Positions 46,500-60,125 of a stretch of DNA of 64,000 nucleotides are shown here, piece after piece. The stretch spans positions 186,803 through 250,802 of the forward strand of contig NZ_BBPP01000009.1 in the NCBI RefSeq assembly GCF_000787835.1, given 5' to 3'. The position numbers and the translations under genes are program-made. How positions within the stretch are numbered: the first letter of the stretch is position 1; every line of letters starts with the position of its first letter. The notes beneath the pieces were generated by a model. That model did not search any database. It had not been told where the DNA came from and was given only the letters and a program-made list of their open reading frames with translations. Source of the stretch: Streptacidiphilus melanogenes. GTDB taxonomy: Bacteria; Actinomycetota; Actinomycetes; Streptomycetales; Streptomycetaceae.

Positions 46500-47639
46500 T
46501 CAGGCGGCGTCGGCCTGCTTCCTGCCGCCGCGGACCCACCGGTGCTCGACCTTGGCGAGGCGCCAGTAGCCGATCGCGCAGGCCCAGACGACGACGAACA
46601 GGCCGACGATGACGAAGCCGACGTTGTTCAGGTCGATGTTCGAGATCCAGCCGGTGACCGGGTCGGTCAGGTCCAGCTGGTCGTGCAGGATGCCGACCAG
46701 CTCGATCGTGCCGATCAGGAACGCGACGGCGATCGAGAGCCCGGTGATGGTGAGGTTGTAGTAGACCTTGCGGACCGGGTTCGAGAATGCCCAGTGGTAG
46801 GCGAAGTTCATGAACGTGCCGTCGAGGGTGTCGAACAGGCTCATACCGGCGGCGAACAGCAGCGGCAGGCAGACGATGGCGTACCAGGGCAGACCGGCGG
46901 CGGCGCCCGACCCGGCCATCACCATCAGCGTCACCTCGGTCGCGGTGTCGAAGCCGATGCCGAACAGCACGCCGACCGGGTACATCTGGCCGGGCCGGGT
47001 GATGGACTTCGTCAGCCGGCCCAGGATGCGGTTCATGAAGCCGCGGCTGTCCAGGTGCTTCTCCAGCTCGTGCTCGTCGAACTGGCCCGCCCGCATGGCC
47101 TTGAAGACCTTCCAGATGCCCACCAGGGCCACCAGGTTGAGCGCGGCGATCAGGTAGAGGAAGCTGCCGGAGGCCAACGTGCTGACGGTGCCCAGGTTCT
47201 GACGGGCGCTGGAGTTGTCTTTGGTCAGGTTCGTGGCGATCCGCATGCCCGCGGCGATGCCCGCCGCCAGCACGATCACGATGCTGGAGTGGCCCAGCGC
47301 GAACCAGAAGCCCACCGAGATCGGCCGCTTGCCGTCGGCCATCAGCTTGCGGGTGGTGTTGTCGATCGCCGCGATGTGGTCGGCGTCGAAGGCGTGCCGC
47401 ATGCCGAGCGTGTAGGCGGTGACGCCGAGGCCAAGGCCGAAGACCTGGGTGCCGACCTTGTAGTGGTGCGGTGCGACGAGCGCCGCGAGGATCCCGAAGG
47501 CGACCACGTGCAGGGCCACGATGACCCCCAGCAGACCGGCGCTGCGCCACCAGTCTCTTCTCTCCCACCGGACGACGGGGGTCGCGGGTATCGCACCCGC
47601 CAGGACAGCGGTCGCGGACGGGTTTTCGGGCAGCGTCAT
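46500..47639 (-). CDS. Nickel/cobalt transporter, NiCoT family (probably cobalt)
   Basis: This 379-aa membrane permease has about eight helices. The metal signature in helix II is present (GMRHAFDADHIAAIDN), with VGFWFALGHSSIVI, LFGIGFDTATEVTLM and AGMSLFDTLDGTFMNFAYHW. All are standard NiCoT motifs. A cobalamin riboswitch in its leader argues for cobalt supply to B12 synthesis rather than nickel for urease or hydrogenase. ATG 47639 follows GGAGAGG. It is convergent with cobF. Confidence 0.94.
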   Translation of the reverse strand: MTLPENPSATAVLAGAIPATPVVRWERRDWWRSAGLLGVIVALHVVAFGILAALVAPHHYKVGTQVFGLGLGVTAYTLGMRHAFDADHIAAIDNTTRKLMADGKRPISVGFWFALGHSSIVIVLAAGIAAGMRIATNLTKDNSSARQNLGTVSTLASGSFLYLIAALNLVALVGIWKVFKAMRAGQFDEHELEKHLDSRGFMNRILGRLTKSITRPGQMYPVGVLFGIGFDTATEVTLMVMAGSGAAAGLPWYAIVCLPLLFAAGMSLFDTLDGTFMNFAYHWAFSNPVRKVYYNLTITGLSIAVAFLIGTIELVGILHDQLDLTDPVTGWISNIDLNNVGFVIVGLFVVVWACAIGYWRLAKVEHRWVRGGRKQADAA

Positions 47640-48779: not shown

Positions 48780-49068
48780 CGGTCCCCCGCTCCCGCGCCC
48801 ACCCCCGCGGCGGCGCGCGGCGCCATCATCCCAGGCCGGAGCGTCGCTGTCGTCAGCAGACGGCGGGGAGCCGGTCCTTCCCGCGCGAGTCCGTGCGCGT
48901 GCGAAGGAGTACGCGACGGTATAGCGTTGTTTCTCGTACAGTCGCAGCCGTACCGGTCACGGCCGTATGAACAGCCGTATCCACCGGCCGCATCGGCATG
49001 CGGCACGGCCCACGTCACATCACACCCCACACCGCTTGGATTGGTCCACGCATGCGGGAGGTGGAGCG

Positions 49069-52000
49069 GTGACGACCGCTACCCGGTGGCGCCCAGACCT
49101 CCCGGTGACCGTCTTCTGTCTGTGGACGATCGCACTCGTCGGTCTGTACTACGCCTTCTCCGCCCAGAGAACCATCTTCGTCGCGGTCGGCCTCAGCGGC
49201 GTCGCGGGCATCCTGCTGGGGCTTGCGCGCAACCGCCCTGCCCATCCGCTGCCCTGGCTGCTGCTGGCCACCGCGAACCTGACGTTCACGCTCGGGGAGC
49301 TCGCGCAGATCGTGCTGATCCAGTACGAGCACGAGAACCCTGTCACGTCGATCGCGGACGCCTTCTACCTCGTCACGTACGTCCTGTACGCCGCGGGGCT
49401 GCTGGGCTTCATCCGCTGGCGGTCGTCACGGCAGGACCGGGCCAGTCTGGTCGACGCGCTCACTCTCACCGCGGCCCTGGCGCTGCTGTCCTGGGTCTAC
49501 GTGATCGTCCCCTACGCGCACACCCCGGGGCAGACCTGGTTCCAGCGGGCCGTCTCCATCACCTACCCCCTCGGGGACATCCTGGTGCTGGCGATGCTGC
49601 TGCGGCTGCTGGCTCCGCGCGGCGGCAAGAACCTCTCCCTGGTCCTGCTCACCGTCGGCACCGTCGGGCTGCTGGCGGCCGACGTCGCCTACGCCCAGCT
49701 CCAGTTGCACGACGTGTGGCGCACCGGCACGCCCGTGGACCTGGGGTGGGCGGTGTTCTACGGGGCGTGGGGCGCGGCGGCCCTGCACCCGTCGATGAGG
49801 GCCCTGACCGAGCCGGTGGTAGTGCGGCAGGAGAGCGTGCGGGGCTGGCGGCTCGGCCTGCTGGCCGTCGCGTCGCTGACGGCTCCGGTGATGCTGATGA
49901 TCGCCGCCGCGCGCGGGAAGACCGGCAACGCCGGCGTGATCGGGGCGTTCTCGGCGGTGCTCTTCCTGCTGGTGCTGCACCGTCTCTCCGGCGTCGCGGC
50001 CACCCACCGTCAGGCGCTCACCCGCGAGCGGGTCCTGCGGACGGCGGCCACCGGACTCGGCGACGCCGAGTCCGTGGCGGACGTCGCCGTGACCGTGACG
50101 GGCGCGGCGCGGGTGCTGCTGGACGGCGGCGCCGGGCGCAGCGTGCTGTTCGCGGTCAGGGACGAGAACGGCGACTGGTGCGTGCGGACGGAGGGGGGCA
50201 TACCACCGGACGGAACGCCCCCGTTCGACGCCGACAGCCTGGCGGTGGTCGCGAGCGGCGGCACCCGGCGGCTGAGCGTCGCCGAGCTGCCCCAACCCCT
50301 GCGGACCTGCTTCTCGGGCCGCCATCCCGTGCTGGTCTGTCCGCTCGCCGCACAGGACCCGTCGACGAAGGACCCACCGGAGACGGGCGCGCTGCTGGCC
50401 GAGACCGACGAGTGGGGCCTGGCGTCCCGTCGCGACAGCCTGGCCACGCTGGCCACCCAGGCGGCCCTGGCCACACAGCGGCTGCTGCTGAGCCGGGAGG
50501 TCGGCCGGCGCAAGAGCGAGGCCTACTTCCGGACCCTGGTGCAGAACGCCTCGGACGTGATCCTGATCCTCGGCGACGACGACACGGTCCGCTACGCGAG
50601 CCCGTCAGCCGCCCAGGTGCTGGGCTCGACGGAACTGACCGGAAGCCGGTTCCCGGATATGGTGGTACCGCAGGAGAAGCGCATCGTGCGCGACGCGCTG
50701 GCCCAGATGCGCGTGCGCGACAGCGACAGCCGGCGCGACCACTGGCGGATGCTGCGGCCGGACAAGAGCGCCGTCGAGGTCGAGGTGCGCTGTAGCGACC
50801 TGCGCACCGACCCCACCGTGGGCGGCTTGGTGCTCACCCTGCGCGATGTCACCGAGCAGCGCAACCTGGAGCGGGAACTGACGCACCGTGCCTTCCACGA
50901 CCCGCTGACGGGTCTGGCGAACCGGCTGCTCTTCCAGGAGCGGGTCTCGCACGCGCTGGCCCAGAGCCACCGCGAGGGCACGGTGGTCGGCGTGCTCTTC
51001 GTCGACGTGGACGACTTCAAGATCGTCAACGACGTGCAGGGCCACGGAGTCGGCGACGAGTTGCTGGTCGCGCTCGCGCTGCGCCTGTCGACCACGGTGC
51101 GGGCCTCGGACACCGCTGCGCGGATCGGCGGCGACGAGTTCGCGCTGCTGATCGAGGACCCGATGACGCCAGCGGACGTGGAGGCCTTCGCCGACCACGT
51201 GCTGCAGGTGTTCACCGAGCCGTTCCAGTTGAGCGTGGGCCCGGTGAGCGCCTACGTCAGCGTCGGCATCGCCACCACCGAGGACAGCTACGACTCCGTC
51301 GAGCTGCTGACCCACGCGGATCTGGCGCTGTACGAGGCGAAGACCGCCGGCAAGCGGCAGTGGCGGCACTACCACCCGTCGCTGCAGAGCGGCATGCTGG
51401 AGCGCCACGAGCTCCAGGACAGCCTCAACCGCGCCGAGGTGGACTCCTTCCAGGTGCTCTACCAGCCGATCGTGGAGCTGGCGACCGGCAGGGTGGAGGG
51501 GTTCGAGGCGCTGCTGCGCTGGCCGCACTCCACCCGCGGTGTGGTGATGCCCGAGCAGTTCATCACGCTGGCCGAGGAGAGCGGCCAGATCGTGCCGCTC
51601 GGAGGCTGGGTGCTCGACCTGGCCACCGCGGAGGCGGTGGGCTGGCACCGCCTGCTGCGGGAACGAAACGTGCGCGGCGGTGTGCCGGTGTGGCCCTACG
51701 TCAGCATCAACGTCTCACCGCGGCAGTTCCACGATCCGGGGTTCCCCGGGGTCATGCACCACGCGCTGGAACAGTCCGGGATCGCTCCCTCGTCGCTGGT
51801 ACTGGAGCTGACGGAGAGTCTGCTCATCCGCCGCGACGAGCGGATCCTGGCCGAGATGCAGAACCTGACCGACCTCGGCATCCGCATCGCCATCGACGAC
51901 TTCGGGACGGGCTACTCGTCGCTGAGCTACCTGCGCGAGTTCCCCATCTCGATTCTGAAGATCGACCGCACGTTCATCGACGAGCTCGGTCGGTCCCCCC

Positions 52001-52236
52001 AGCAGTACGCGCTGGTGGAAGGCATCACGCACCTGGCCGACACCCTGGGGGTGACGGTGATCGCCGAAGGAGTGGAGACCACCCGGCAGCAGGAACTGCT
52101 GATCGCGCTGGGCTGCCATCGCGGTCAGGGCTACCTGTTCGCGCAGCCGATGGAGGCGGAGGCCGCCCGCGAACTCCTGCTCGAATCGGCGTCCGGCGCC
52201 TTCAGGCCCAGCACGCTGCGACCCGGAGTCGCCTGA
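49069..52236 (+). CDS. Membrane GGDEF-EAL protein (diguanylate cyclase/phosphodiesterase)
   Basis: This 1055-aa c-di-GMP turnover protein has an N-terminal block of eight or nine membrane helices (residues 1-310), a GAF-like and PAS region (about 320-600, FRTLVQNASDVILILGDDDT), a GGDEF domain with intact IGGDEF at 686-691, and an EAL domain with FEALLRW at 812-818, plus IAIDDFGTGYSSL. Both active sites look complete, so net activity is undecidable. It resembles the RmdA/RmdB group of Streptomyces. GTG 49069 with GGGAGG at 7 nt is preferred over the ATG at 48967, which has no ribosome site. The next gene starts 42 bp later. Confidence 0.93.
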   Translation: MTTATRWRPDLPVTVFCLWTIALVGLYYAFSAQRTIFVAVGLSGVAGILLGLARNRPAHPLPWLLLATANLTFTLGELAQIVLIQYEHENPVTSIADAFYLVTYVLYAAGLLGFIRWRSSRQDRASLVDALTLTAALALLSWVYVIVPYAHTPGQTWFQRAVSITYPLGDILVLAMLLRLLAPRGGKNLSLVLLTVGTVGLLAADVAYAQLQLHDVWRTGTPVDLGWAVFYGAWGAAALHPSMRALTEPVVVRQESVRGWRLGLLAVASLTAPVMLMIAAARGKTGNAGVIGAFSAVLFLLVLHRLSGVAATHRQALTRERVLRTAATGLGDAESVADVAVTVTGAARVLLDGGAGRSVLFAVRDENGDWCVRTEGGIPPDGTPPFDADSLAVVASGGTRRLSVAELPQPLRTCFSGRHPVLVCPLAAQDPSTKDPPETGALLAETDEWGLASRRDSLATLATQAALATQRLLLSREVGRRKSEAYFRTLVQNASDVILILGDDDTVRYASPSAAQVLGSTELTGSRFPDMVVPQEKRIVRDALAQMRVRDSDSRRDHWRMLRPDKSAVEVEVRCSDLRTDPTVGGLVLTLRDVTEQRNLERELTHRAFHDPLTGLANRLLFQERVSHALAQSHREGTVVGVLFVDVDDFKIVNDVQGHGVGDELLVALALRLSTTVRASDTAARIGGDEFALLIEDPMTPADVEAFADHVLQVFTEPFQLSVGPVSAYVSVGIATTEDSYDSVELLTHADLALYEAKTAGKRQWRHYHPSLQSGMLERHELQDSLNRAEVDSFQVLYQPIVELATGRVEGFEALLRWPHSTRGVVMPEQFITLAEESGQIVPLGGWVLDLATAEAVGWHRLLRERNVRGGVPVWPYVSINVSPRQFHDPGFPGVMHHALEQSGIAPSSLVLELTESLLIRRDERILAEMQNLTDLGIRIAIDDFGTGYSSLSYLREFPISILKIDRTFIDELGRSPQQYALVEGITHLADTLGVTVIAEGVETTRQQELLIALGCHRGQGYLFAQPMEAEAARELLLESASGAFRPSTLRPGVA

Positions 52237-52278
52237 GCCGGCCGCCGCCCGGCTCCCGAACCCCTGGAAGGCCCCTGG

Positions 52279-55200
52279 ATGGCGATGCCACAGAGACCCT
52301 CGCCCACGCCACGGCCCGGCCGGTACCTGCTGCTCCGCAACGACCAGGAGCAGTCCGGCGTCTGGCCGGCGGAGCTCGCACCGCCGGACGGCTGGCGCCC
52401 GGCCGGGCCTCCGTCGGAGTCCGCCCACGCGTCCTCCGCCGCGCTCGCCGCAGGACGCCCGTACCTCTGGCCGAAGCTCAGTCCCGGTCACCGCAGCCCG
52501 CCGGGCGCGCCGACCGGCCGGGCCGCCGGCCGCGGAGCCCGCGGCGATCCGGTGCCGACCGTCTCCGCGCTGGTCCGCACGCAGGCACACCGCACGCCGC
52601 TCGCTCCGGCGCTGCTGTGGGCCGGCGGCCAGTTCGACTACTCCGCCTTGGACACCCGCGCCGACGTGACCGCCGCGGCGCTGCAGGAGCGCGGCTGCGT
52701 GCCCGGCACGGTGGCGGCGGTCTGCCTGGACCGCACCGCCGATCTGGTGGTCTGCCTGCTCGCCATCCTGCGCACGGGGGCGACCCTGCTGCCCCTCGAT
52801 CCCGCGATGCCCCCCGCCCGCCTGGCCCATCTGCTGGGCGACGCACGCGCCCGCCTGGTCATCACCGGGGAGGACCACCGGCGGCTGTGCGAGGCCGCCG
52901 CGACGGCCGGGTCCGTGGACGCCGGTCGCGGGGCCGCCACCACGGCGGTCGTCCCGGTCGACGAGGTGACCGGCGTGGGCAAGCCGGGGGAAGGGCCGTG
53001 GGAGCGGCCACGGCCGGACGAGCCCGACCCGGACGACGTCGCCTACCTGATCTACACCTCCGGCTCGACCGGGGCGCCGAAGGGCATCGCGGTCACCCAC
53101 CGCTCCCTGGCCGGCTCCCTGGCCGCGTCCTCCGCCTGGTACGGCTGGCATCCCGGCGACCGCGCCGTGCACCTGGCCGCGATCAGCTTCGACACCTCAC
53201 TGGAGCAGATCTTCGGCCCGCTGATCACCGGGGCCGCCACCGTCCTGACCGGCGGACCGCCCTGGGCCCCGACCGAGGTGCTGGACGCCGTCGCCCGGCA
53301 CCGGATCTCCACCCTCGACCTCACGCCCGCCTACTCCCGCCAGCTCCTCAGCCTGCTCGGGACCGGCCGGTACGCGCTCGACACGCTGCGGCTGGTGGTC
53401 GTCGGCGGGGAGATCGTCCGGGCCAAGGACTGCCGCGGCTGGCTGGAGCACGCTCCCGGGGCCAGGCTGGTCAACGCCTACGGACTGACCGAGACCACGA
53501 TCACCTCGACCACCTGCGACCTCGGCGCCTGGGCCGCCACGGCGGACGACAGCGCCCCGGCCCCGGTGGGTCGCCCGCTGCGGGGCACCCTCGTCCACGT
53601 CCTCGACCCGGACCTGCGGCCGGTGCCGTCGGGCGAACGGGGCGAGGTCTACATCGGCGGCAACCATCTGGCCGAGGGCATCTGGCGGCAACCCGACCGG
53701 ACGGCGGAGGAGTTCCTGCCGGACCCCCTGGCCGACAGCCCCGGGGGACGGATGTACCGCACGGGCGACATCGGGGTGCTGCAGCCGGACGGAACGCTGT
53801 CGGTGGTCGGCCGCGTCGACGACCAGATCAAGATCCGCGGTCACCGGATCGACCCCGCGGAGATCGAGGCCGTGCTGCGGGCCCACCCGGCCGTCGACGA
53901 CGTCGTGGTCGTCGCGCAGCAGCGCGACCAACGTGACCAACTGGACCAGCATCTGGCCGCGTTCTACCGCCCCGCGCCCGACGCCGCGCCCGACGGCGAG
54001 ACGGCGGACCAGCTGCGCCGCGCGCTCGCCCGGGCCCTGCCCGGCTACATGATGCCCGCCTCGTTCACCGCCGTGGAGAGCCTGCCGGTCACGCCGCACG
54101 GGAAGATCGACCGCCGGGCGCTGGCCCGGGCCGCGCACCAGGCCCGCTCCACGGCCGGCCACGCCCCGCCTCCCGCCCGAGCTCCTGCCACGCGCGTCCC
54201 GGCACCGGCCGTTCCCGAACCGACGGTCTCGGAGCCGACCGTCCTCCCGCCGGCCGCACCGGCTCCGGCCGCTCCACTCCGGCCCCACGCCGCCATGGCA
54301 CACCTGTGGTCGCAGATCCTCGGCGTCGGACACGTCCGCGAGGAGGACGACTTCTTCCATCTGGGCGGCAACTCACTGCTCGCCATGGAGATGCTGGCGC
54401 GGGCCCGCGTCATCTTCGGCATCGACATCACCGAGGTGCGCGAACTCTCCCGCGCGCTCCTGCACCGTCCCACCCTCGCGGCCTTCACCGAGCAGGCGAT
54501 GCTGGCCCGCCGCGGCCGACTGACCGGCGCCGACCAGCCACCGGTCGACTTCGCCGCCGAGGCGGCGCTGAACCTGACCGCCGCCGGTACGCGCGGCCCC
54601 GAGCCGAACCCCCACCGGCCCAGGGACATCCTGCTCACCGGGGCGACCGGCCTGTGCGGCGCGCACATGCTCGACGAACTCCTGCGGCGCACCGGAGCCC
54701 GGATCCACTGCCTGGTGCGCGCCGCCGACCAGGCCCAGGCCTTCGAGCGGCTGCGCGCCGCCCATCTGCGCTACCTGCGGCGGGATCTCGCCGCCGACCG
54801 GCGGCGGGACCGGATCCTGCCGACCGTGGGCGACCTCGCCGCGCCGCGGCTCGGGCTCGCCGCGGAGACCGCCGAAGCGCTGGAAGCGGAGCTCGACCTG
54901 ATCTACCACTTCGGCGCCCAGGTCAACTTCATCTACCCCTACCAGGACCTGCGGGCCGCCAATGTGAACTCCGTCCGCGCGCTGGTCGAACTGGCCGCAC
55001 CCCGGTCGGTCCCGCTGCACTACACCTCCAGCCTGGCGGTCATGGCCGGGTACGGCGCCGCGGGCGTCAAACAGGTCACCGAGAGCACTCCCCTGGGCCA
55101 CGCCGACTACCTCTCCGTCGGATACGTCGAGTCCAAGTGGGTGGCGGAGCTGCTGCTGCAGCACGCGGCCGCGGTGGGCGTCCCGGTCAGCGTCTACCGG

Positions 55201-56580
55201 CTCCAGGACGTCACCGGCTCCCTCAGCACGGGCGTCCTCAACACCGCGACGGAGATCTGCGCCCTCATCAGGTTCGTGGCCGACTCCGGCCTGTGTCCCG
55301 CCGTCGACCTGCCCCTGGACCTGCTGCCGGCCGACGACTTCGCGCACGCGGTGCACCACATCTCCACCGCCGTCCCGCACGCCGGGGGCGTCTACCACCT
55401 GACCAACCCCCGCCCCGCGTTGGTGGACGTGCTGGGCGACACCCTGCGCACGCGGGGGTGGGCGGTCCGGGAGGTTCCCTACCCCGAGTGGGTGGGCGCG
55501 CTGATCCGGTTCGCGGCCGAGCGCCCGGCCCATCCGGTGACCCCGTTCGTGCCGCTCTTCGTCGACCGCTGCAACCACGCCGACATGAGCGTCAGCGAGA
55601 TGTACCTGCAAAGCGTCTTCCCGCGCTTCAGCCGCGACCACGCGGAGGCCGCCCTGGCCGGCAGCGGCCTGCGGATCCCCCCGGTGGACCGGGACATGCT
55701 CGGCCGCTACGTGGACGCCCTGGAGGGCGAGGGCTATCTCCCGCCCCCGCACCGGAAGACCTCCCGCCCGGCGACGCCGGACGGTGCGTCCTGGCCCGCA
55801 CTCGACCTCTCCCACGCCCCCGCGGACGCGCCCGTCGCCTTCGGCGGCAGCCTCGCCCCCGACGACGTCCGTGCCGCCTACGCCGCGGGCGCCTATCCCA
55901 TGCCCGCGCCCGACGACCGCACCCGCGAGACGGCCATGGCCTCCTACGGGGCCGAGGTGCGCGCCGGGCGCATCCCCGTCGTCGGAGCGGAGGGCGACCC
56001 GTGGGCCGTCACCTGGTGGTCACCCGACCCCCGGCCGGTGATCCCCGTCGACGGGGTCCACCTCAGCCGCAGACTCGCCCGCACCCTGAACCACCGCCTG
56101 CGCTGGACCACCAGTGCCGACCGGGACTTCGAGCAGGTCCTGCACGCCTGCCGGGCCGGACGCCGGCCGGTGTGGCTCACCGACGAGCTGATGGACTGCC
56201 TGCTCGAGCTGCACGCGCGGGGCCTGGCGCACAGCGACGAGGTCTGGGAGGGCGACCAGTTGGTCGGCGGCGTGCTCGGCGTGCGGGTCGGCCGCGCCTT
56301 CAGCATGGACACGATGTTCGGTGCCCGCCCGGGGGCCGGCGCGGTCGCGGTGGCCGACCTGGCGCGGCGCTTCGCCGAGGCGGGCGGGGAACTCCTGGAC
56401 GCCCAGCGCGACAGCGCGCACGTGCGGGCGCTCGGCGCGGTGCTGATGCCGCGTCAGCAGTACCTCTCGCTGCTCCGCGGCGACGAGCGGAGCGGCGATC
56501 TCGACTCCGTGCCGCCCCTGCCTCCCTGGCCTCCCCTGCCGACGGCCGCGGCGGAGGCCCGCCGGCTCACGGCCCGCTGA
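52279..56580 (+). CDS. MbtH-A-PCP-reductase-Aat fusion megaenzyme (NRPS plus tRNA-dependent aminoacyl transferase)
   Basis: 1433 aa. Residues 14-75 resemble MbtH proteins (NDQEQSGVWP, PPDGW, YLWPKL). The adenylation domain (about 95-620) has YTSGSTGAPKG near 259, FDTS, NAYGLTE at 399, YRTGDI, GRVDDQIKIRGHRID at 511 and the A10 Lys at 609. The carrier has LGGNS with the pantetheine Ser at 699. The thioester reductase has TGATGLCG near 787 and YVESK (Tyr949, Lys953). From 1185 the sequence is Leu/Phe-tRNA-protein transferase (Aat) type: WWSPDPRP at 1246, SMDTMF, LLDAQ. It should activate one amino acid, add another from aminoacyl-tRNA, and release reductively. GGAAGG lies 7 nt before ATG 52279. 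It follows the GGDEF-EAL gene by 42 bp. The product is not known. Confidence 0.9.
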   Translation: MAMPQRPSPTPRPGRYLLLRNDQEQSGVWPAELAPPDGWRPAGPPSESAHASSAALAAGRPYLWPKLSPGHRSPPGAPTGRAAGRGARGDPVPTVSALVRTQAHRTPLAPALLWAGGQFDYSALDTRADVTAAALQERGCVPGTVAAVCLDRTADLVVCLLAILRTGATLLPLDPAMPPARLAHLLGDARARLVITGEDHRRLCEAAATAGSVDAGRGAATTAVVPVDEVTGVGKPGEGPWERPRPDEPDPDDVAYLIYTSGSTGAPKGIAVTHRSLAGSLAASSAWYGWHPGDRAVHLAAISFDTSLEQIFGPLITGAATVLTGGPPWAPTEVLDAVARHRISTLDLTPAYSRQLLSLLGTGRYALDTLRLVVVGGEIVRAKDCRGWLEHAPGARLVNAYGLTETTITSTTCDLGAWAATADDSAPAPVGRPLRGTLVHVLDPDLRPVPSGERGEVYIGGNHLAEGIWRQPDRTAEEFLPDPLADSPGGRMYRTGDIGVLQPDGTLSVVGRVDDQIKIRGHRIDPAEIEAVLRAHPAVDDVVVVAQQRDQRDQLDQHLAAFYRPAPDAAPDGETADQLRRALARALPGYMMPASFTAVESLPVTPHGKIDRRALARAAHQARSTAGHAPPPARAPATRVPAPAVPEPTVSEPTVLPPAAPAPAAPLRPHAAMAHLWSQILGVGHVREEDDFFHLGGNSLLAMEMLARARVIFGIDITEVRELSRALLHRPTLAAFTEQAMLARRGRLTGADQPPVDFAAEAALNLTAAGTRGPEPNPHRPRDILLTGATGLCGAHMLDELLRRTGARIHCLVRAADQAQAFERLRAAHLRYLRRDLAADRRRDRILPTVGDLAAPRLGLAAETAEALEAELDLIYHFGAQVNFIYPYQDLRAANVNSVRALVELAAPRSVPLHYTSSLAVMAGYGAAGVKQVTESTPLGHADYLSVGYVESKWVAELLLQHAAAVGVPVSVYRLQDVTGSLSTGVLNTATEICALIRFVADSGLCPAVDLPLDLLPADDFAHAVHHISTAVPHAGGVYHLTNPRPALVDVLGDTLRTRGWAVREVPYPEWVGALIRFAAERPAHPVTPFVPLFVDRCNHADMSVSEMYLQSVFPRFSRDHAEAALAGSGLRIPPVDRDMLGRYVDALEGEGYLPPPHRKTSRPATPDGASWPALDLSHAPADAPVAFGGSLAPDDVRAAYAAGAYPMPAPDDRTRETAMASYGAEVRAGRIPVVGAEGDPWAVTWWSPDPRPVIPVDGVHLSRRLARTLNHRLRWTTSADRDFEQVLHACRAGRRPVWLTDELMDCLLELHARGLAHSDEVWEGDQLVGGVLGVRVGRAFSMDTMFGARPGAGAVAVADLARRFAEAGGELLDAQRDSAHVRALGAVLMPRQQYLSLLRGDERSGDLDSVPPLPPWPPLPTAAAEARRLTAR

Positions 56581-56620: not shown

Positions 56621-58684
56621 TCAGGCGAGTTCGGCCCAGATGGTCTTCGCGTCACGCGCGTAGCGCGTGCCCCAGTCCTGCGAGAGCCGCCCCACGATGA
56701 ACAGGCCGCGGCCGCCCTCGTCGACGGTGCGCGCATGGCGCAGATGCGGGGCCGCCAGGCTTGCGTCGCGGACCTCGCAGGTGAGCGTGCCGTCGTGGAT
56801 CAGGCGCAGCCCGATCGGGCCGCGCGCGTGGCGGATGGCGTTGGTGACCAGCTCGCTGACGATCAGTTCGGCGGCGTAGGCCTGCTCCTCGTCCAGGTCC
56901 CAAGCGGCGAGGCGGTCACGGACGTGACGCCGCGCGACGGCGGCAGCGGCGGGGTCCGCGTCCAGCTGCCAGCCCGCGACCTGGTCGGGCGGGAAGGGTT
57001 TGGTACGGGCCAGGAGCAACGCCACGTCGACCGAACCCGCCGGAGGGAGGGAGTAGACGATCTCGTCGCACAGGTCCTGCAGCGGCCGGTGCGGACGGCT
57101 CAGCGCCTCCTTGATCGCGCGCGGGCCGTGGACGTGGTCGGCGGCGTCGTTGGCGAGGGTGGACAGGGCCAGCACCCCGCCCTCCGGGACCTCCAGGCTG
57201 ACCGCGGCGAAAGGGGAACGGTCGAGCTCTCCGAGGCGTGGCCCGGCGGGGATCTCGGGGTTTTCTACGGTTCCGTCCGGGTGGGCGACGAGCAGGCCCC
57301 CGGAGCCCGACCGGGCGACGGTGCACCGCAGCGAGAGCGGGTCGTAGACGGCCACGAGGCAGTCCGCGAGCCAGGGCCCCGCGTGCTGCAGATCCGCCGC
57401 GGGCAGGTCGGCCAGCTCGCCGGCCAGCACCAGCGTGGTGTCGTGCAGGCGGGCGAGCAGCTCGTCGGGGCCCAGGTCGAAGCCCGCGAGGGAGCGGATC
57501 ACGGTACGCAGCTGCCCCATGGCGGTGGTCGCCCGGATGCCCTGCCCGGCGACGTCTCCGACGACCAGCGCGGTGCGTGCGCCGGGCAGGCCGATCACAT
57601 CGGTCCACTGTCCGCCGCCCGGGGGCAGCAACGAGGCGGGGGTGATCTCCAGGGCGGTGCGCGAGATGCGTCGGGGAGGCAGGAGGTACCGCTGGAGGGT
57701 GGCCGCGAGAGCATGCTCGCGCGCGTAGCGGCGCGCGTTGTCGATGCTCAGGGCCGCATGGTCGGCCACCTCGAGCAGCAGGGCGGTGTCGTCGTCGCCG
57801 AAGCCCTCCGAGGGCTCCTGGCGGTAGAGCGTGACCAGGCCGAGCACCGAGCCGTGCACGGTCAGCGGGACGACGAGCATCGAGTGCGCCCCGAGCTCCC
57901 GGATGGACTTCACCCGGGCCGGATCGGCCGCGACCCACGGCAGGTCGTCCAGCAGCGGCACGGTCCGGGGCCGCAGGTCCGACAGTGCCTGGGTGTACGG
58001 GGTGGGCCCGGGGATGTCGTAGACCGTGCCCACCGGATACAGCGGTTCGTGCTCCCCCGAGGTGGAGCGGAACGCCGCGCGCCGCAGAGGTGTGCTCGGC
58101 ACGAGGGCGGCGGGCGCCGGGGCGTCCCCGCGGATGACGGCGTCGACGACGTCCACGCTCACGGTGTCCGCGATGTCGGGCACCAGCACATCTACCAGCT
58201 CGCGGCAGGTGGCGAGCACGTCCAGGGTCCGCCCGACCCGCTCCCGCGCCCTGGCCAGGGTGCGCAGCCGCCGGCGGGCATTCTCCCGCTCGGTGACGTC
58301 GACCACCTGGAGCGCGACGGCGAAGACGCTGCCGTTCCGGTCCTGGAGCCGGAAGGCGGACAGGGAATACGTCCGCTCGCGCTCGGGCTTGTCCACCGCC
58401 CAGGCCCGCACGATCTGGTTGACCAGCGGCTCACCGCCGTCCAGAACGGCCCTGACCCGCTCCTCGACCTCCTGCGCGTCGACGAGGCCGTAGGCCTCCG
58501 TCAGCGGACGCCCGACGAGGTCCTCCTCCCGGAGGGTCCGCATGGCCGGGGTGGCCACGTTGACCCGGATGACGCGCAGGTCGGTGTCGAGCAGGTGCAG
58601 CCCGACCGGCGACTGCTCGAACAGCACGTCCAGCAGCGCCTCCGCCGCTCCTTCGGCGTCGTCGAGAGCGTCACCGCTGCCCAC
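56621..58684 (-). CDS. PAS-GAF-PP2C-like-HATPase protein with a degenerate phosphatase domain
   Basis: 687 aa in four parts. A PAS domain (LDVLFEQSPVGLHLLDTDLR) is followed by a GAF (GAHSMLVVPLTVHGSVLGLV), a SpoIIE/RsbU-like domain, and a C-terminal HATPase_c of anti-sigma-kinase type (VSELVTNAIRHA N-box, VDEGGRGLFIV G-box). In the PP2C part the metal motifs are altered: GGQWTD replaces GGDWYD, LALSTLAND replaces LYTDGL, and SVDVALL replaces DDVALL. It may therefore be a pseudophosphatase sensor with an active kinase end. It starts with GTG 58684 (GGAAGG at 8 nt) or 58693. It is convergent with the megaenzyme gene. Confidence 0.88.
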   Translation of the reverse strand: MGSGDALDDAEGAAEALLDVLFEQSPVGLHLLDTDLRVIRVNVATPAMRTLREEDLVGRPLTEAYGLVDAQEVEERVRAVLDGGEPLVNQIVRAWAVDKPERERTYSLSAFRLQDRNGSVFAVALQVVDVTERENARRRLRTLARARERVGRTLDVLATCRELVDVLVPDIADTVSVDVVDAVIRGDAPAPAALVPSTPLRRAAFRSTSGEHEPLYPVGTVYDIPGPTPYTQALSDLRPRTVPLLDDLPWVAADPARVKSIRELGAHSMLVVPLTVHGSVLGLVTLYRQEPSEGFGDDDTALLLEVADHAALSIDNARRYAREHALAATLQRYLLPPRRISRTALEITPASLLPPGGGQWTDVIGLPGARTALVVGDVAGQGIRATTAMGQLRTVIRSLAGFDLGPDELLARLHDTTLVLAGELADLPAADLQHAGPWLADCLVAVYDPLSLRCTVARSGSGGLLVAHPDGTVENPEIPAGPRLGELDRSPFAAVSLEVPEGGVLALSTLANDAADHVHGPRAIKEALSRPHRPLQDLCDEIVYSLPPAGSVDVALLLARTKPFPPDQVAGWQLDADPAAAAVARRHVRDRLAAWDLDEEQAYAAELIVSELVTNAIRHARGPIGLRLIHDGTLTCEVRDASLAAPHLRHARTVDEGGRGLFIVGRLSQDWGTRYARDAKTIWAELA

Positions 58685-58840: not shown

Positions 58841-60031
58841 TCAGCAGCAGAAGTCCCGGACGGTGGCGGTCAGGACGTCGGTGAGCAGGTCGAGCGAGGC
58901 GAGGTCGACGTACTCGGTGGCCGCGTGCGCGCCTGCGCCGTCGACGCCGAAGAGGAGGCAGGGGATACCCGCGCGGTCGAGGAGCGCGCAGTCGGTCCAG
59001 AAGGGTTCGGCGCGCACGACCGGGGGGTGGCCGAGGGCCAGGGTGGCGTGGTGCGTGAGGGTGCGGACGACGGGGGCCTGCGGGTCGGCCTCGAAGGGCT
59101 CGCGGTGGAGGCCGCGGGTGAGTCGGTAGGCGAAGTCGGGGACCGTGGCCGTCAGGTGGTCCAGGAGGGAGGTGAGTTCCTGTTCGACGCGATCGGCATG
59201 CTCGCCGGGGACGGTGCGGCGTTCCAGGGTGATGCGGCAATGGGCCGGATAGGTGGAGGGCTCCTCGCCGCCGCGGATGACGGAGGCGTGCACGGTGCCG
59301 GTGCCGAGGAGGGGGTGCGCCGGGCCCTTTGCGAGGCGGCGGCCCAGGTCCTCCAGGGCGACCAGGAAGTGCCCGGCCTTGGCGATCGCGTCGACGCCCA
59401 GCTCGGGGCGTGATCCGTGCGCCGCGCGTCCGACGATCTCGACGTCGAACCAGGCGAAGCCCTTGTGGGCGAGGGTGACCTCGAGGTGGCTCGGTTCGAC
59501 GACGACGGCCGCGTCGGCCGTGAAGGACTCCAGCACCTCCTCGGTGCCGAAGCTGGCGTGCTCCTCGTCGGCGACCAGGGCGAGCACGACGTCGCCGCGC
59601 AGCGGCCCGTCGGCGGTGGCGCGCGCGGCGGCGACCATCATGGCCGCGAGACCGCCCTTCATGTCGAAGGTGCCGCGCCCGTGCATCCTGCCGTCGCGTA
59701 TCCGCGGTTCCAGCGGGTCGCCGTCGTAGCCCGCGAGGCTGACGGTGTCGAGGTGGCCGTTGAGCATCAGGGCCCGGCCGCCACCGGTCCCGCGGACGAG
59801 GGCCACGAGGGAGGGACGGCCCGGGTGCTGCTCCAGCCGGTGCAGTTCGAACCCGCGGGCGGCCAGCCAGCCGCCGCAGTAGTCGGCGATGGCGCTCTCG
59901 CCCGCCCCGCCGGGGACGAGGTCGGGGTTGACGGAGTCGATGGCGACCAGGCGGGCCAGTAAGCCCGTCGGCGTGACAGCGGACTCTGCGGTGGCGGAGG
60001 TCTCGGGGGCTGCGGCTGTCTCGGGGACCAT
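58841..60031 (-). CDS. M20-family metallopeptidase / deacylase (ArgE/DapE-like)
   Basis: This 396-aa di-zinc hydrolase has metal ligands in LMLNGHLDTVSLAGY and GRGTFDMKGGLAAMM, the catalytic general base in LVADEEHASFGTEEV, and a dimerisation lid with VGRAAHGSRPELGVDA. It could be an acetylornithine deacetylase, a succinyl-diaminopimelate desuccinylase or a peptidase; motifs do not separate these. ATG 60031 has GGAAGGA at 5 nt. It stands on the minus strand behind the metallophosphoesterase gene. Confidence 0.9.
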   Translation of the reverse strand: MVPETAAAPETSATAESAVTPTGLLARLVAIDSVNPDLVPGGAGESAIADYCGGWLAARGFELHRLEQHPGRPSLVALVRGTGGGRALMLNGHLDTVSLAGYDGDPLEPRIRDGRMHGRGTFDMKGGLAAMMVAAARATADGPLRGDVVLALVADEEHASFGTEEVLESFTADAAVVVEPSHLEVTLAHKGFAWFDVEIVGRAAHGSRPELGVDAIAKAGHFLVALEDLGRRLAKGPAHPLLGTGTVHASVIRGGEEPSTYPAHCRITLERRTVPGEHADRVEQELTSLLDHLTATVPDFAYRLTRGLHREPFEADPQAPVVRTLTHHATLALGHPPVVRAEPFWTDCALLDRAGIPCLLFGVDGAGAHAATEYVDLASLDLLTDVLTATVRDFCC

Positions 60032-60125
60032 GACGTCCTTCCAGGCGAGGTGACGCCGCCTCCGGAGACCGAAGGCGCGCGCTTGCCCGAGCACAGTGCC
60101 GCACCCGCGTCCCACCGGTCCAGCC

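What the first reader, a model, noticed from the sequence alone, without database searches (positions are those of the whole stretch)
52279..56580. One-protein peptide synthetase joining an NRPS module, a thioester reductase and a tRNA-dependent aminoacyl transferase
The 1433-aa protein carries complete motif sets for NRPS adenylation, carrier and NADPH reductase domains. After residue 1185 it has a recognisable leucyl/phenylalanyl-tRNA-protein transferase (Aat) sequence: WWSPDPRP, DELVGG-like DQLVGGVLGV, LLDAQ, SLGA-like ALGAVLMPRQQYL. Aat enzymes add Leu or Phe from tRNA to N-terminal Arg or Lys. A carrier-bound Arg- or Lys-like residue could therefore be the acceptor here, and the reductase would release a leupeptin-like dipeptide aldehyde or alcohol. 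From memory, separate Aat-like and NRPS genes were proposed as a tRNA-dependent peptide system in Streptomyces lividans; a single-chain version with this order is not something I know as described. Domain calls are seen in the sequence. The product is inference.
Basis: partly seen in the sequence, partly recalled or inferred. Interest (0 to 1): 0.95.

Follow-up and report, generated by a model that had tools for sequence, protein, structure and literature searches.

The report
tRNA-fed peptide synthetase paired with c-di-GMP enzyme
One bacterial protein joins a peptide-synthetase module to a transferase domain that is predicted to take an amino acid from a transfer RNA, so it would make a tiny peptide, probably containing arginine, without the usual joining domain, and its relatives in the same bacterial family nearly always sit beside a gene for an enzyme predicted to make or break the signal c-di-GMP, which suggests a likely link between the product and that signal.

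Summary
Window 52279-56580 is one 1433-aa frame: MbtH-like, adenylation (A), carrier (PCP), thioester reductase (R), L/F-transferase (LFT). The claim that such fusions are undescribed is wrong: Aguilar 2023 (PMC10548850) reports LFT/C-minus-NRPS fusions and RNase-sensitive activity of the separate-gene livipeptin system.

What appears new is the subtype. Among 394 genomes of the family, 61 of 62 A-PCP-R+LFT loci have the same adjacent gene: c2, a membrane PAS-GGDEF-EAL protein, 42 bp upstream here. By genome: 61 have both, 1 c2 only, 1 synthetase only, 331 neither. Outside this draw the link is weaker: 4 of 8 further named loci. The five c2-lacking loci seen carry a putative N-acyltransferase; no c2-type Streptomycetaceae locus does, Trebonia has both. 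The six fusions form one clade.

Best reading: a tRNA-dependent Leu/Phe-Arg aldehyde maker whose uncapped product probably cyclises to an arglecin-type pyrazinone, tied to c-di-GMP signalling. Substrate, product and the c-di-GMP link are inferred.

The parts
48967..52236 (+). c2: membrane protein with PAS, GGDEF and EAL domains (predicted bifunctional diguanylate cyclase/phosphodiesterase). Start uncertain: 48967 (longest frame), about 49069 (implied by database entry P0007, 1055 aa) or 49105 (my codon-usage call)
   Evidence: Pfam EAL 9.5e-70, GGDEF 7e-42, PAS_4 4.1e-08; GGDEF, RASD and EALLR motifs intact; ten long N-terminal helices plus GAF-like and PAS-like parts in an AlphaFold2 model, pLDDT 80 (a simple hydropathy scan found eight segments); adjacent gene in 61 of 62 related loci
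52266..52271 (+). GGAAGG, a likely ribosome-binding site for the fusion gene in the 42-bp gap after c2
   Evidence: read directly from the sequence; function inferred
52279..56580 (+). single-chain MbtH-like / A / PCP / R / LFT synthetase, 1433 aa
52318..52458 (+). MbtH-like domain (aa 14-60)
   Evidence: PF03621 aa 14-48, 29 bits over cut-off 27; precomputed in P0002, P0004, P0005, P0006, not in P0003; two strands and a helix modelled with block pLDDT 76-92
52555..54135 (+). adenylation domain (aa 93-619); code DTEAVGAITK
   Evidence: TIGR01733 4.7e-115; code and its conservation
54301..54435 (+). carrier protein (aa 675-719), GGNSLL phosphopantetheine site
   Evidence: PF00550 1e-07; motif read
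54628..55737 (+). thioester reductase (aa 784-1153), GATG nucleotide motif and YVESK
   Evidence: TIGR01746 256.8 bits vs 213.35; motifs read
55831..56487 (+). L/F-transferase domain (aa 1185-1403); catalytic-type Asp1374 and Gln1376; Asp1344 where canonical Aat has Glu
   Evidence: PF03588 9.3e-40; PDB 2z3k 1.5e-29; residue comparison

Best explanation
The protein carries all the domains expected of a one-chain, tRNA-dependent dipeptide synthetase and would make a Leu- or Phe-arginine aldehyde that, lacking a cap, likely closes to an arglecin-type pyrazinone, while the c-di-GMP enzyme gene next to it probably ties that product to cell signalling. Proposed steps: (1) the A domain, probably helped by its own MbtH-like domain, activates an amino acid, inferred to be Arg, and loads the carrier; (2) the LFT domain would transfer Leu or Phe from aminoacyl-tRNA onto the carrier-bound Arg amino group, replacing a condensation domain (supported elsewhere only as RNase sensitivity of the separate-gene livipeptin system of S. 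lividans); (3) the R domain releases the dipeptide as an aldehyde (domain shown, chemistry inferred); (4) with no N-acyltransferase in the locus, the free amine attacks the aldehyde and oxidation gives a pyrazinone (inferred from known chemistry); (5) the membrane PAS-GGDEF-EAL protein c2 makes or degrades c-di-GMP in connection with this product, either sensing it or controlling its synthesis (inferred from gene adjacency). The fusion most likely arose once, inside Streptacidiphilus, from adjacent A-PCP-R and LFT genes that overlap in their nearest unfused relatives.
For: Domains. A-domain code DTE(A/T/S/D)(V/I/L)GA(I/V)T in 60 of 62 loci; the two others are L077 (partial A) and L104 (split frame). 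Acidic residues that align with E230 and S269 of the ApnA A1 construct (recalled as the Arg/Tyr-selecting E204 and S243): Glu in 60 of 62, Asp in 62 of 62. LFT catalytic-type Asp and Gln kept in 61 of 61 aligned at those columns. tRNA dependence of the sister system: RNase abolishes the activity, all three genes needed (PMC10548850). c2: adjacent gene in 61 of 62 loci, 50 divergent and 11 same-strand; the next commonest neighbour family is in 15 of 74 loci; genome table 61/1/1/331 of 394; 61 of 61 linked c2 proteins keep GGDEF and EAL motifs; c2 and synthetase distances correlate, r = 0.92 over 60 loci. No cap gene: putative N-acyltransferase in 5 of 5 c2-lacking loci, in none of the c2-type Streptomycetaceae loci fetched, no relative in 43 of 61 such genomes. 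Arglecin and argvalin are Streptomyces Arg pyrazinones that one study attributes to aldehyde cyclisation (PMC11212599 passages; also named in PMC12144821 passages).
Against: No product, substrate or expression data. Arg is inferred from pocket residues and from the published prediction; the best solved match in the pocket region is FscH, crystallised with Ser-AMP, ahead of ApnA A1. Outside the 394-genome draw the c2 link is not general: of 12 named A-PCP-R+LFT loci 8 have c2, four of these matching genomes already counted, so 4 of 8 further loci; L131, without c2, is itself a Streptomyces. N-acyltransferase relatives exist elsewhere in 18 of 61 c2-type genomes, several at 46-54% identity, and in the window's own genome at 37% with a stop counted inside the match, so capping in trans is possible. 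Trebonia kvetii L136 has both c2 and the acyltransferase. Four c2 copies stand alone in genomes that also have a linked copy. BldD-box core upstream of c2 in only 2 of 61 (3 of 577 other upstream regions). The counts are not corrected for shared ancestry.
Confidence: 0.48

Rival explanations
1. It is a livipeptin-type protease-inhibitor maker: the Leu/Phe-arginal is acylated by an enzyme encoded elsewhere in the genome, and c2 only regulates it.
For: Same core domains and a similar A-domain pocket to the sister system; relatives of the livipeptin-type acyltransferase lie elsewhere in 18 of 61 c2-type genomes.
Against: 43 of 61 c2-type genomes have no such relative; of the five fusion genomes three have none and two have 37-38% matches with a stop counted inside. 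An unrelated acyltransferase was not looked for.
Confidence: 0.23
2. The c2 gene is only an old neighbour carried along with the synthetase, with no functional tie.
For: The c2-synthetase pair looks inherited together from one ancestor (correlated distances); four free copies exist; four named loci outside the draw have the synthetase without c2.
Against: Adjacent gene in 61 of 62 loci while the next commonest neighbour is in 15 of 74; adjacency kept through one inferred strand change (50 divergent, 11 same strand), the fusion, and two copies in this genome each with its own c2; 61 of 61 keep both catalytic motifs.
Confidence: 0.22
3. The LFT domain no longer acts on carrier-bound substrate; it is a housekeeping N-degron tagging enzyme that happens to be fused.
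For: The Aat family match and catalytic-type Asp/Gln are kept.
Against: Of 68 genomes with an LFT, 62 have it beside A-PCP-R (G061 over two contigs). NRPS-type sequences differ from 67 presumed canonical ones at fixed positions: Asp in 61 of 61 versus Glu in 67 of 67, Phe in 58 of 62 (Leu in the window) versus Tyr in 67 of 67.
Confidence: 0.05
4. The reductase makes the alcohol (four-electron reduction) rather than the aldehyde.
For: Thioester reductase domains of this family can stop at aldehyde or alcohol (general knowledge, recalled).
Against: The sister system gives protease inhibition as expected of an aldehyde (PMC10548850), though its product was not solved; no sequence test was made here.
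Confidence: 0.1

Closest known systems
Livipeptin system of Streptomyces lividans 66 (Sli0883-Sli0885; BGC0001168), Aguilar et al. 2023, PMC10548850
   Same: A-PCP-R protein without condensation domain plus LFT; Arg predicted; fusions of the two noted in other actinobacteria
   Different: There the genes are separate, an N-acyltransferase is required, followed by O-methyltransferase and acyl-CoA dehydrogenase genes; c-di-GMP, GGDEF, MbtH and pyrazin do not occur in the text (figures and supplement not seen)
Housekeeping Aat (E. coli L/F-transferase, PDB 2z3k, 2dps)
   Same: Significant sequence match and catalytic-type Asp and Gln
   Different: Fused to an NRPS module; Glu of the GES motif is Asp in all 61 NRPS-type sequences aligned there
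Dimodular pyrazinone NRPS such as aureusimine synthetase AusA (NF047350)
   Same: A domain, carrier, reductive release; NF047350 matches the A part far below its cut-off
   Different: Two A domains and a condensation domain there (recalled); here one A domain and, by inference, tRNA as the second amino-acid source
CdgF/CdgC-type 10TM-PAS-PAC-GGDEF-EAL proteins of S. venezuelae (PMC6205966)
   Same: Same domain layout as c2
   Different: NRPS and non-ribosomal do not occur in that text (passages only seen); orthology of c2 to CdgF was not tested

Membership tests
Leu/Phe-tRNA transferase family (PF03588) | Match above the curated cut-off | tested here: met
   136.3 bits vs 22.7
Leu/Phe-tRNA transferase family (PF03588) | Catalytic-type Asp and Gln (LIDCQ in E. 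coli; role recalled) | tested here: met
   LLDAQ, Asp1374 and Gln1376; 61 of 61 NRPS-type and 67 of 67 presumed canonical
Leu/Phe-tRNA transferase family (PF03588) | Transfers Leu/Phe from aminoacyl-tRNA | not testable with these tools
   needs biochemistry
Housekeeping Aat subfamily | Glu in the GES(M)F motif, stand-alone protein | tested here: not met
   Asp1344; fused protein
C-minus NRPS + LFT (tRUE) kind described in PMC10548850 | A-PCP-R without condensation or thioesterase domain, partnered with LFT | tested here: met
   no Pfam condensation or thioesterase match
C-minus NRPS + LFT (tRUE) kind described in PMC10548850 | A domain specific for Arg | tested here: inconclusive
   two acidic pocket residues conserved; no assay
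Livipeptin gene cluster proper | N-acyltransferase, O-methyltransferase and acyl-CoA dehydrogenase genes beside the core | tested here: not met
   no tblastn match in the window's locus L033 or any other c2-type Streptomycetaceae locus
MbtH-like proteins (PF03621) | Match above the curated cut-off | tested here: met
   29 bits vs 27; marginal, backed by relatives
Bifunctional GGDEF-EAL enzymes (c2) | Intact GGDEF and EAL motifs | tested here: met
   61 of 61 linked proteins
Bifunctional GGDEF-EAL enzymes (c2) | Measured cyclase or phosphodiesterase activity | not testable with these tools
   needs biochemistry

The most novel reading that the evidence does not exclude
A self-contained signal system: a tRNA-fed synthetase makes an Arg pyrazinone or Arg aldehyde signal, and its partner c2, a ten-helix membrane receptor carrying PAS, GGDEF and EAL domains, reads that signal into c-di-GMP, so that aminoacyl-tRNA supply is converted into a developmental second-messenger decision in filamentous actinobacteria.
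Probability: 0.22. Interest if true: 0.88.

Novelty: new variant of a known kind. Interest (0 to 1): 0.65.

Why it matters
The fusion itself is already reported. The pairing of a tRNA-dependent peptide synthetase with a membrane c-di-GMP enzyme was not found in print, which are narrow searches: one search did not even return Aguilar 2023, and figures and supplements were not seen. If it holds, it offers a testable route from aminoacyl-tRNA to a small molecule to c-di-GMP in bacteria whose development is governed by c-di-GMP, a plausible gene source for arginine pyrazinones such as arglecin, and a compact one-protein enzyme that would join amino acids without a condensation domain.

Tried and rejected
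BldD-box scan (consensus recalled) in 400 bp upstream of c2: 2 of 61 loci against 3 of 577 other upstream regions; too few to be a conserved site, dropped.

Plasmid search for the LFT domain: 37 records, all below 60% identity, none covering 80% of the query; of the 20 listed nine carry an Aat-type annotation and all are Gram-negative, so no Streptomyces plasmid copy was seen. Literature search for six exact A-domain codes: 0 papers; for ApnA specificity with five terms: 0 papers. First genome-contig scan with the window LFT alone confirmed nothing; an alignment query worked and was capped at 80 of 589 confirmed stretches.

Order-level search: 8 of 293 genomes with PF03588, seven of them already seen; the eighth (G398) was not examined.

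Considered and rejected: frameshift or chimeric contig as the cause of the fusion (six loci in one clade); housekeeping Aat.

Limits of counts: the 62 R-bearing loci are from 74 loci fetched from the 68 of 394 genomes with PF03588. Twelve loci without R: L059, L064, L070, L081, L094, L096, L097, L099, L101, L102, L103, and L090 (contig end; G061's A-PCP-R and c2 lie on another contig, and joining the two is inferred). L104 was left out of the synthetase tree and 60 loci entered the distance comparison. Six loci (L038, L060, L061, L065, L073, L082) end within about 1.1 kb after LFT, so a downstream cap gene could be missed; one search covers their genomes. Gene calls come from my own codon-usage caller, which clips some starts, so overlap and gap numbers are approximate. 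One search listed five fused clusters; one search showed a sixth (P0167), so five is not a full count. Searches scored only the roughly 8000 candidates sharing most words.
Full report
WHAT IS THERE. The frame 52279-56580 (+) is uninterrupted, 1433 aa. It carries an MbtH-like domain (aa 14-48 by Pfam, 29 bits against a cut-off of 27), A (100-609), PCP (675-719), R (784-1153) and an L/F-transferase domain (PF03588 at 1243-1390, 9.3e-40). The LFT part alone matches E. coli Aat crystal structures at 1.5e-29. The MbtH-like part is modelled as two strands and a helix with block pLDDT 76-92. The window is G000:C99:186803-250802.

IS IT KNOWN. Yes in kind. Aguilar et al. 2023 (PMC10548850; parts 1-4 of 5 read, part 5 being the rest of the references; figures and supplement not seen) describe the livipeptin system of S. 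lividans 66: an A-PCP-R protein without condensation domain, an L/F-transferase and an N-acyltransferase. All three genes are needed for protease-inhibitory activity, and RNase abolishes it. The same paper reports potentially translational fusions of transferase and NRPS in other actinobacteria and predicts Arg for the A domain. Livipeptin's structure was not solved. The words GGDEF, diguanylate, c-di-GMP, MbtH and pyrazin do not occur in its text.

SURVEY. PF03588 was found in 68 of 394 genomes of the family. I fetched 74 loci. Of these, 62 hold A-PCP-R next to or fused with LFT: 6 fused, 33 with overlapping genes, 23 with a gap. All six fusions are in the window's genus and form one clade (support 0.999) whose sister group is the two unfused loci of the same genus, L046 and L051, in which the called NRPS and LFT genes overlap by 11 bases. 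So the fusion most likely happened once. The window genome holds two fused copies, here and at C77 (L032). In L052 the MbtH-like part and the start of A lie in another frame than the rest. In the protein database search, fused proteins were few: five clusters and a sixth (P0167).

THE PARTNER GENE. Clustering all neighbours gave one family, c2, in 61 of 74 loci; the next commonest neighbour is in 15. c2 is the adjacent gene in 61 of the 62 A-PCP-R loci, 50 divergent and 11 on the same strand. In the window it ends 42 bp before the fusion start, and in L046 and L051 it overlaps the called NRPS gene by 4 bases. Over 394 genomes, c2 at 56% identity or more and the synthetase occur together in 61, c2 alone in 1 (G130, on a 3.6-kb contig), the synthetase alone in 1 (G012), neither in 331. 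These genomes are related, so the Fisher value is not a clean probability; the contrast with other neighbours is the better control. Apart from G130, genomes without the synthetase that pass one search's threshold (E <= 1e-180) hold a paralogue at roughly 48-54% identity; ten such loci were fetched and none shows A, PCP, R or LFT nearby.

LIMITS OF THE LINK. In the named set, 12 loci hold A-PCP-R plus LFT; 8 of 12 have c2. Four of those 8 (L129, L132, L134, L138) match contigs already counted, so the further sample is 4 of 8: Streptomyces L126-L128 and Trebonia kvetii L136 with c2; Micromonospora L130, Streptomyces L131, Actinophytocola L133 and Nocardiopsis L135 without. Linked c2 proteins and the Trebonia c2 (48% identity) group apart from the free paralogues; four free c2 copies, 64-66% identical, nest inside the linked group. 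c2 carries PAS, GGDEF and EAL domains, and all 61 linked copies keep GG[DE]EF and EAL motifs. The N-terminal model (pLDDT 80) shows ten long helices, a GAF-like and a PAS-like part (naming of parts is mine; a hydropathy scan found eight segments). This is the layout of CdgC/CdgF of S. venezuelae (PMC6205966, passages).

TWO SUBTYPES. The five loci that have A-PCP-R and LFT but no c2 (L077, L130, L131, L133, L135) all carry, right after LFT, a roughly 250-aa protein without Pfam match and, for the two tested, without NCBIfam match. In four of them O-methyltransferase and acyl-CoA dehydrogenase genes lie nearby, the gene set published for livipeptin, so I take the protein for the N-acyltransferase (inferred from order). 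None of the c2-type Streptomycetaceae loci fetched has it; Trebonia L136 has both c2 and this gene, so the two traits are not strictly exclusive. Genome-wide, 43 of 61 c2-type genomes lack any relative of it; 18 have one, none of them in the fetched neighbourhood of the synthetase, two of the 18 being very weak matches.

SUBSTRATE AND CHEMISTRY. Anchoring to motifs (GrsA numbering recalled) gives the A-domain code DTEAVGAITK. Over 62 loci it is DTE(A/T/S/D)(V/I/L)GA(I/V)T in 60, the exceptions being a partial and a split A domain; the tenth residue is K except R in L062. In the pocket region the best solved matches are FscH (with Ser-AMP by its title) and then ApnA A1, known for Arg/Tyr (recalled). 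Our Glu aligns with ApnA E230 and our Asp with S269 (construct numbering); these columns are Glu in 60 of 62 and Asp in 62 of 62. This fits Arg but is not a test. LFT keeps the Asp and Gln of the LIDCQ motif in 61 of 61; where 67 of 67 presumed canonical enzymes have Glu it has Asp (61 of 61), so the NRPS-type is a distinct subgroup. With an R domain and a free amine, Leu/Phe-arginal should cyclise; arglecin and argvalin are such Streptomyces pyrazinones, and one study assumes that they form by aldehyde cyclisation and oxidation (PMC11212599, passages).

MOST LIKELY MECHANISM. Arg loaded on the carrier; Leu or Phe added from tRNA by the LFT domain; reductive release; ring closure to an Arg pyrazinone. 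Shown: domains, residues, gene arrangement, one fusion clade. Shown elsewhere for the separate-gene relative: RNase sensitivity and need for all three genes. Inferred: Arg, Leu/Phe, aldehyde, pyrazinone, and the c-di-GMP tie. The weakest step is what c2 does: it may sense the product, control its synthesis, or only travel with it.

VERDICT. Observation confirmed; the fusion is not new, but the c-di-GMP-paired, cap-less subtype was not found in print, which are narrow. On checking, confidence in the best reading was lowered from 0.50 to 0.48, the neighbour-only rival raised from 0.20 to 0.22, the capped-in-trans rival raised from 0.22 to 0.23 and interest lowered from 0.66 to 0.65, because the further named loci split 4 of 8 on c2 and several unlinked acyltransferase relatives are fairly close.

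Noticed in passing
L032 8178-15425 (G000:C77): Second MbtH-A-PCP-R-LFT fusion in the same genome, with its own c2 copy upstream (70% identical to the window's).
   Followed up: yes
L136 2454-10744 (Trebonia kvetii): c2 divergent from A-PCP-R + LFT, plus the putative N-acyltransferase next to c2: both subtypes' marks in one locus.
   Followed up: partly
L064, L070, L081: LFT two genes from an opposite-strand A-PCP gene of 1105-1106 aa without a reductase, same neighbours in three genomes; possibly another tRNA-dependent system.
   Followed up: no
L094, L097, L099, L102, L103: A more distant LFT (35-39% identity) beside a LuxR-type AAA regulator, in four of the five also near A-PCP genes without reductase.
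   Followed up: no
L106-L109: Free-standing c2 copies 64-66% identical to the window's c2, in Kitasatospora-group genomes that also have a linked copy.
   Followed up: partly
L131 10785-11558 and homologues in L077, L130, L133, L135: Protein family of about 250 aa beside livipeptin-type loci with no Pfam match (five of five tested) and no NCBIfam match (two of two tested); probably the livipeptin-type N-acyltransferase.
   Followed up: partly
L076 6952-8514 (-) and its cluster c8, 14 loci: Protein of about 520 aa near LFT in 14 of 74 loci; the one member tested has no Pfam or NCBIfam match.
   Followed up: no
window 56621-58684 (-): PAS-GAF-SpoIIE phosphatase with an anti-sigma-type ATPase domain just downstream, convergent to the fusion gene.
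   Followed up: no
window 58841-60094 (-): M20-family peptidase gene near the synthetase.
   Followed up: no
window 46500-47639 (-): NicT-type nickel transporter upstream of c2.
   Followed up: no
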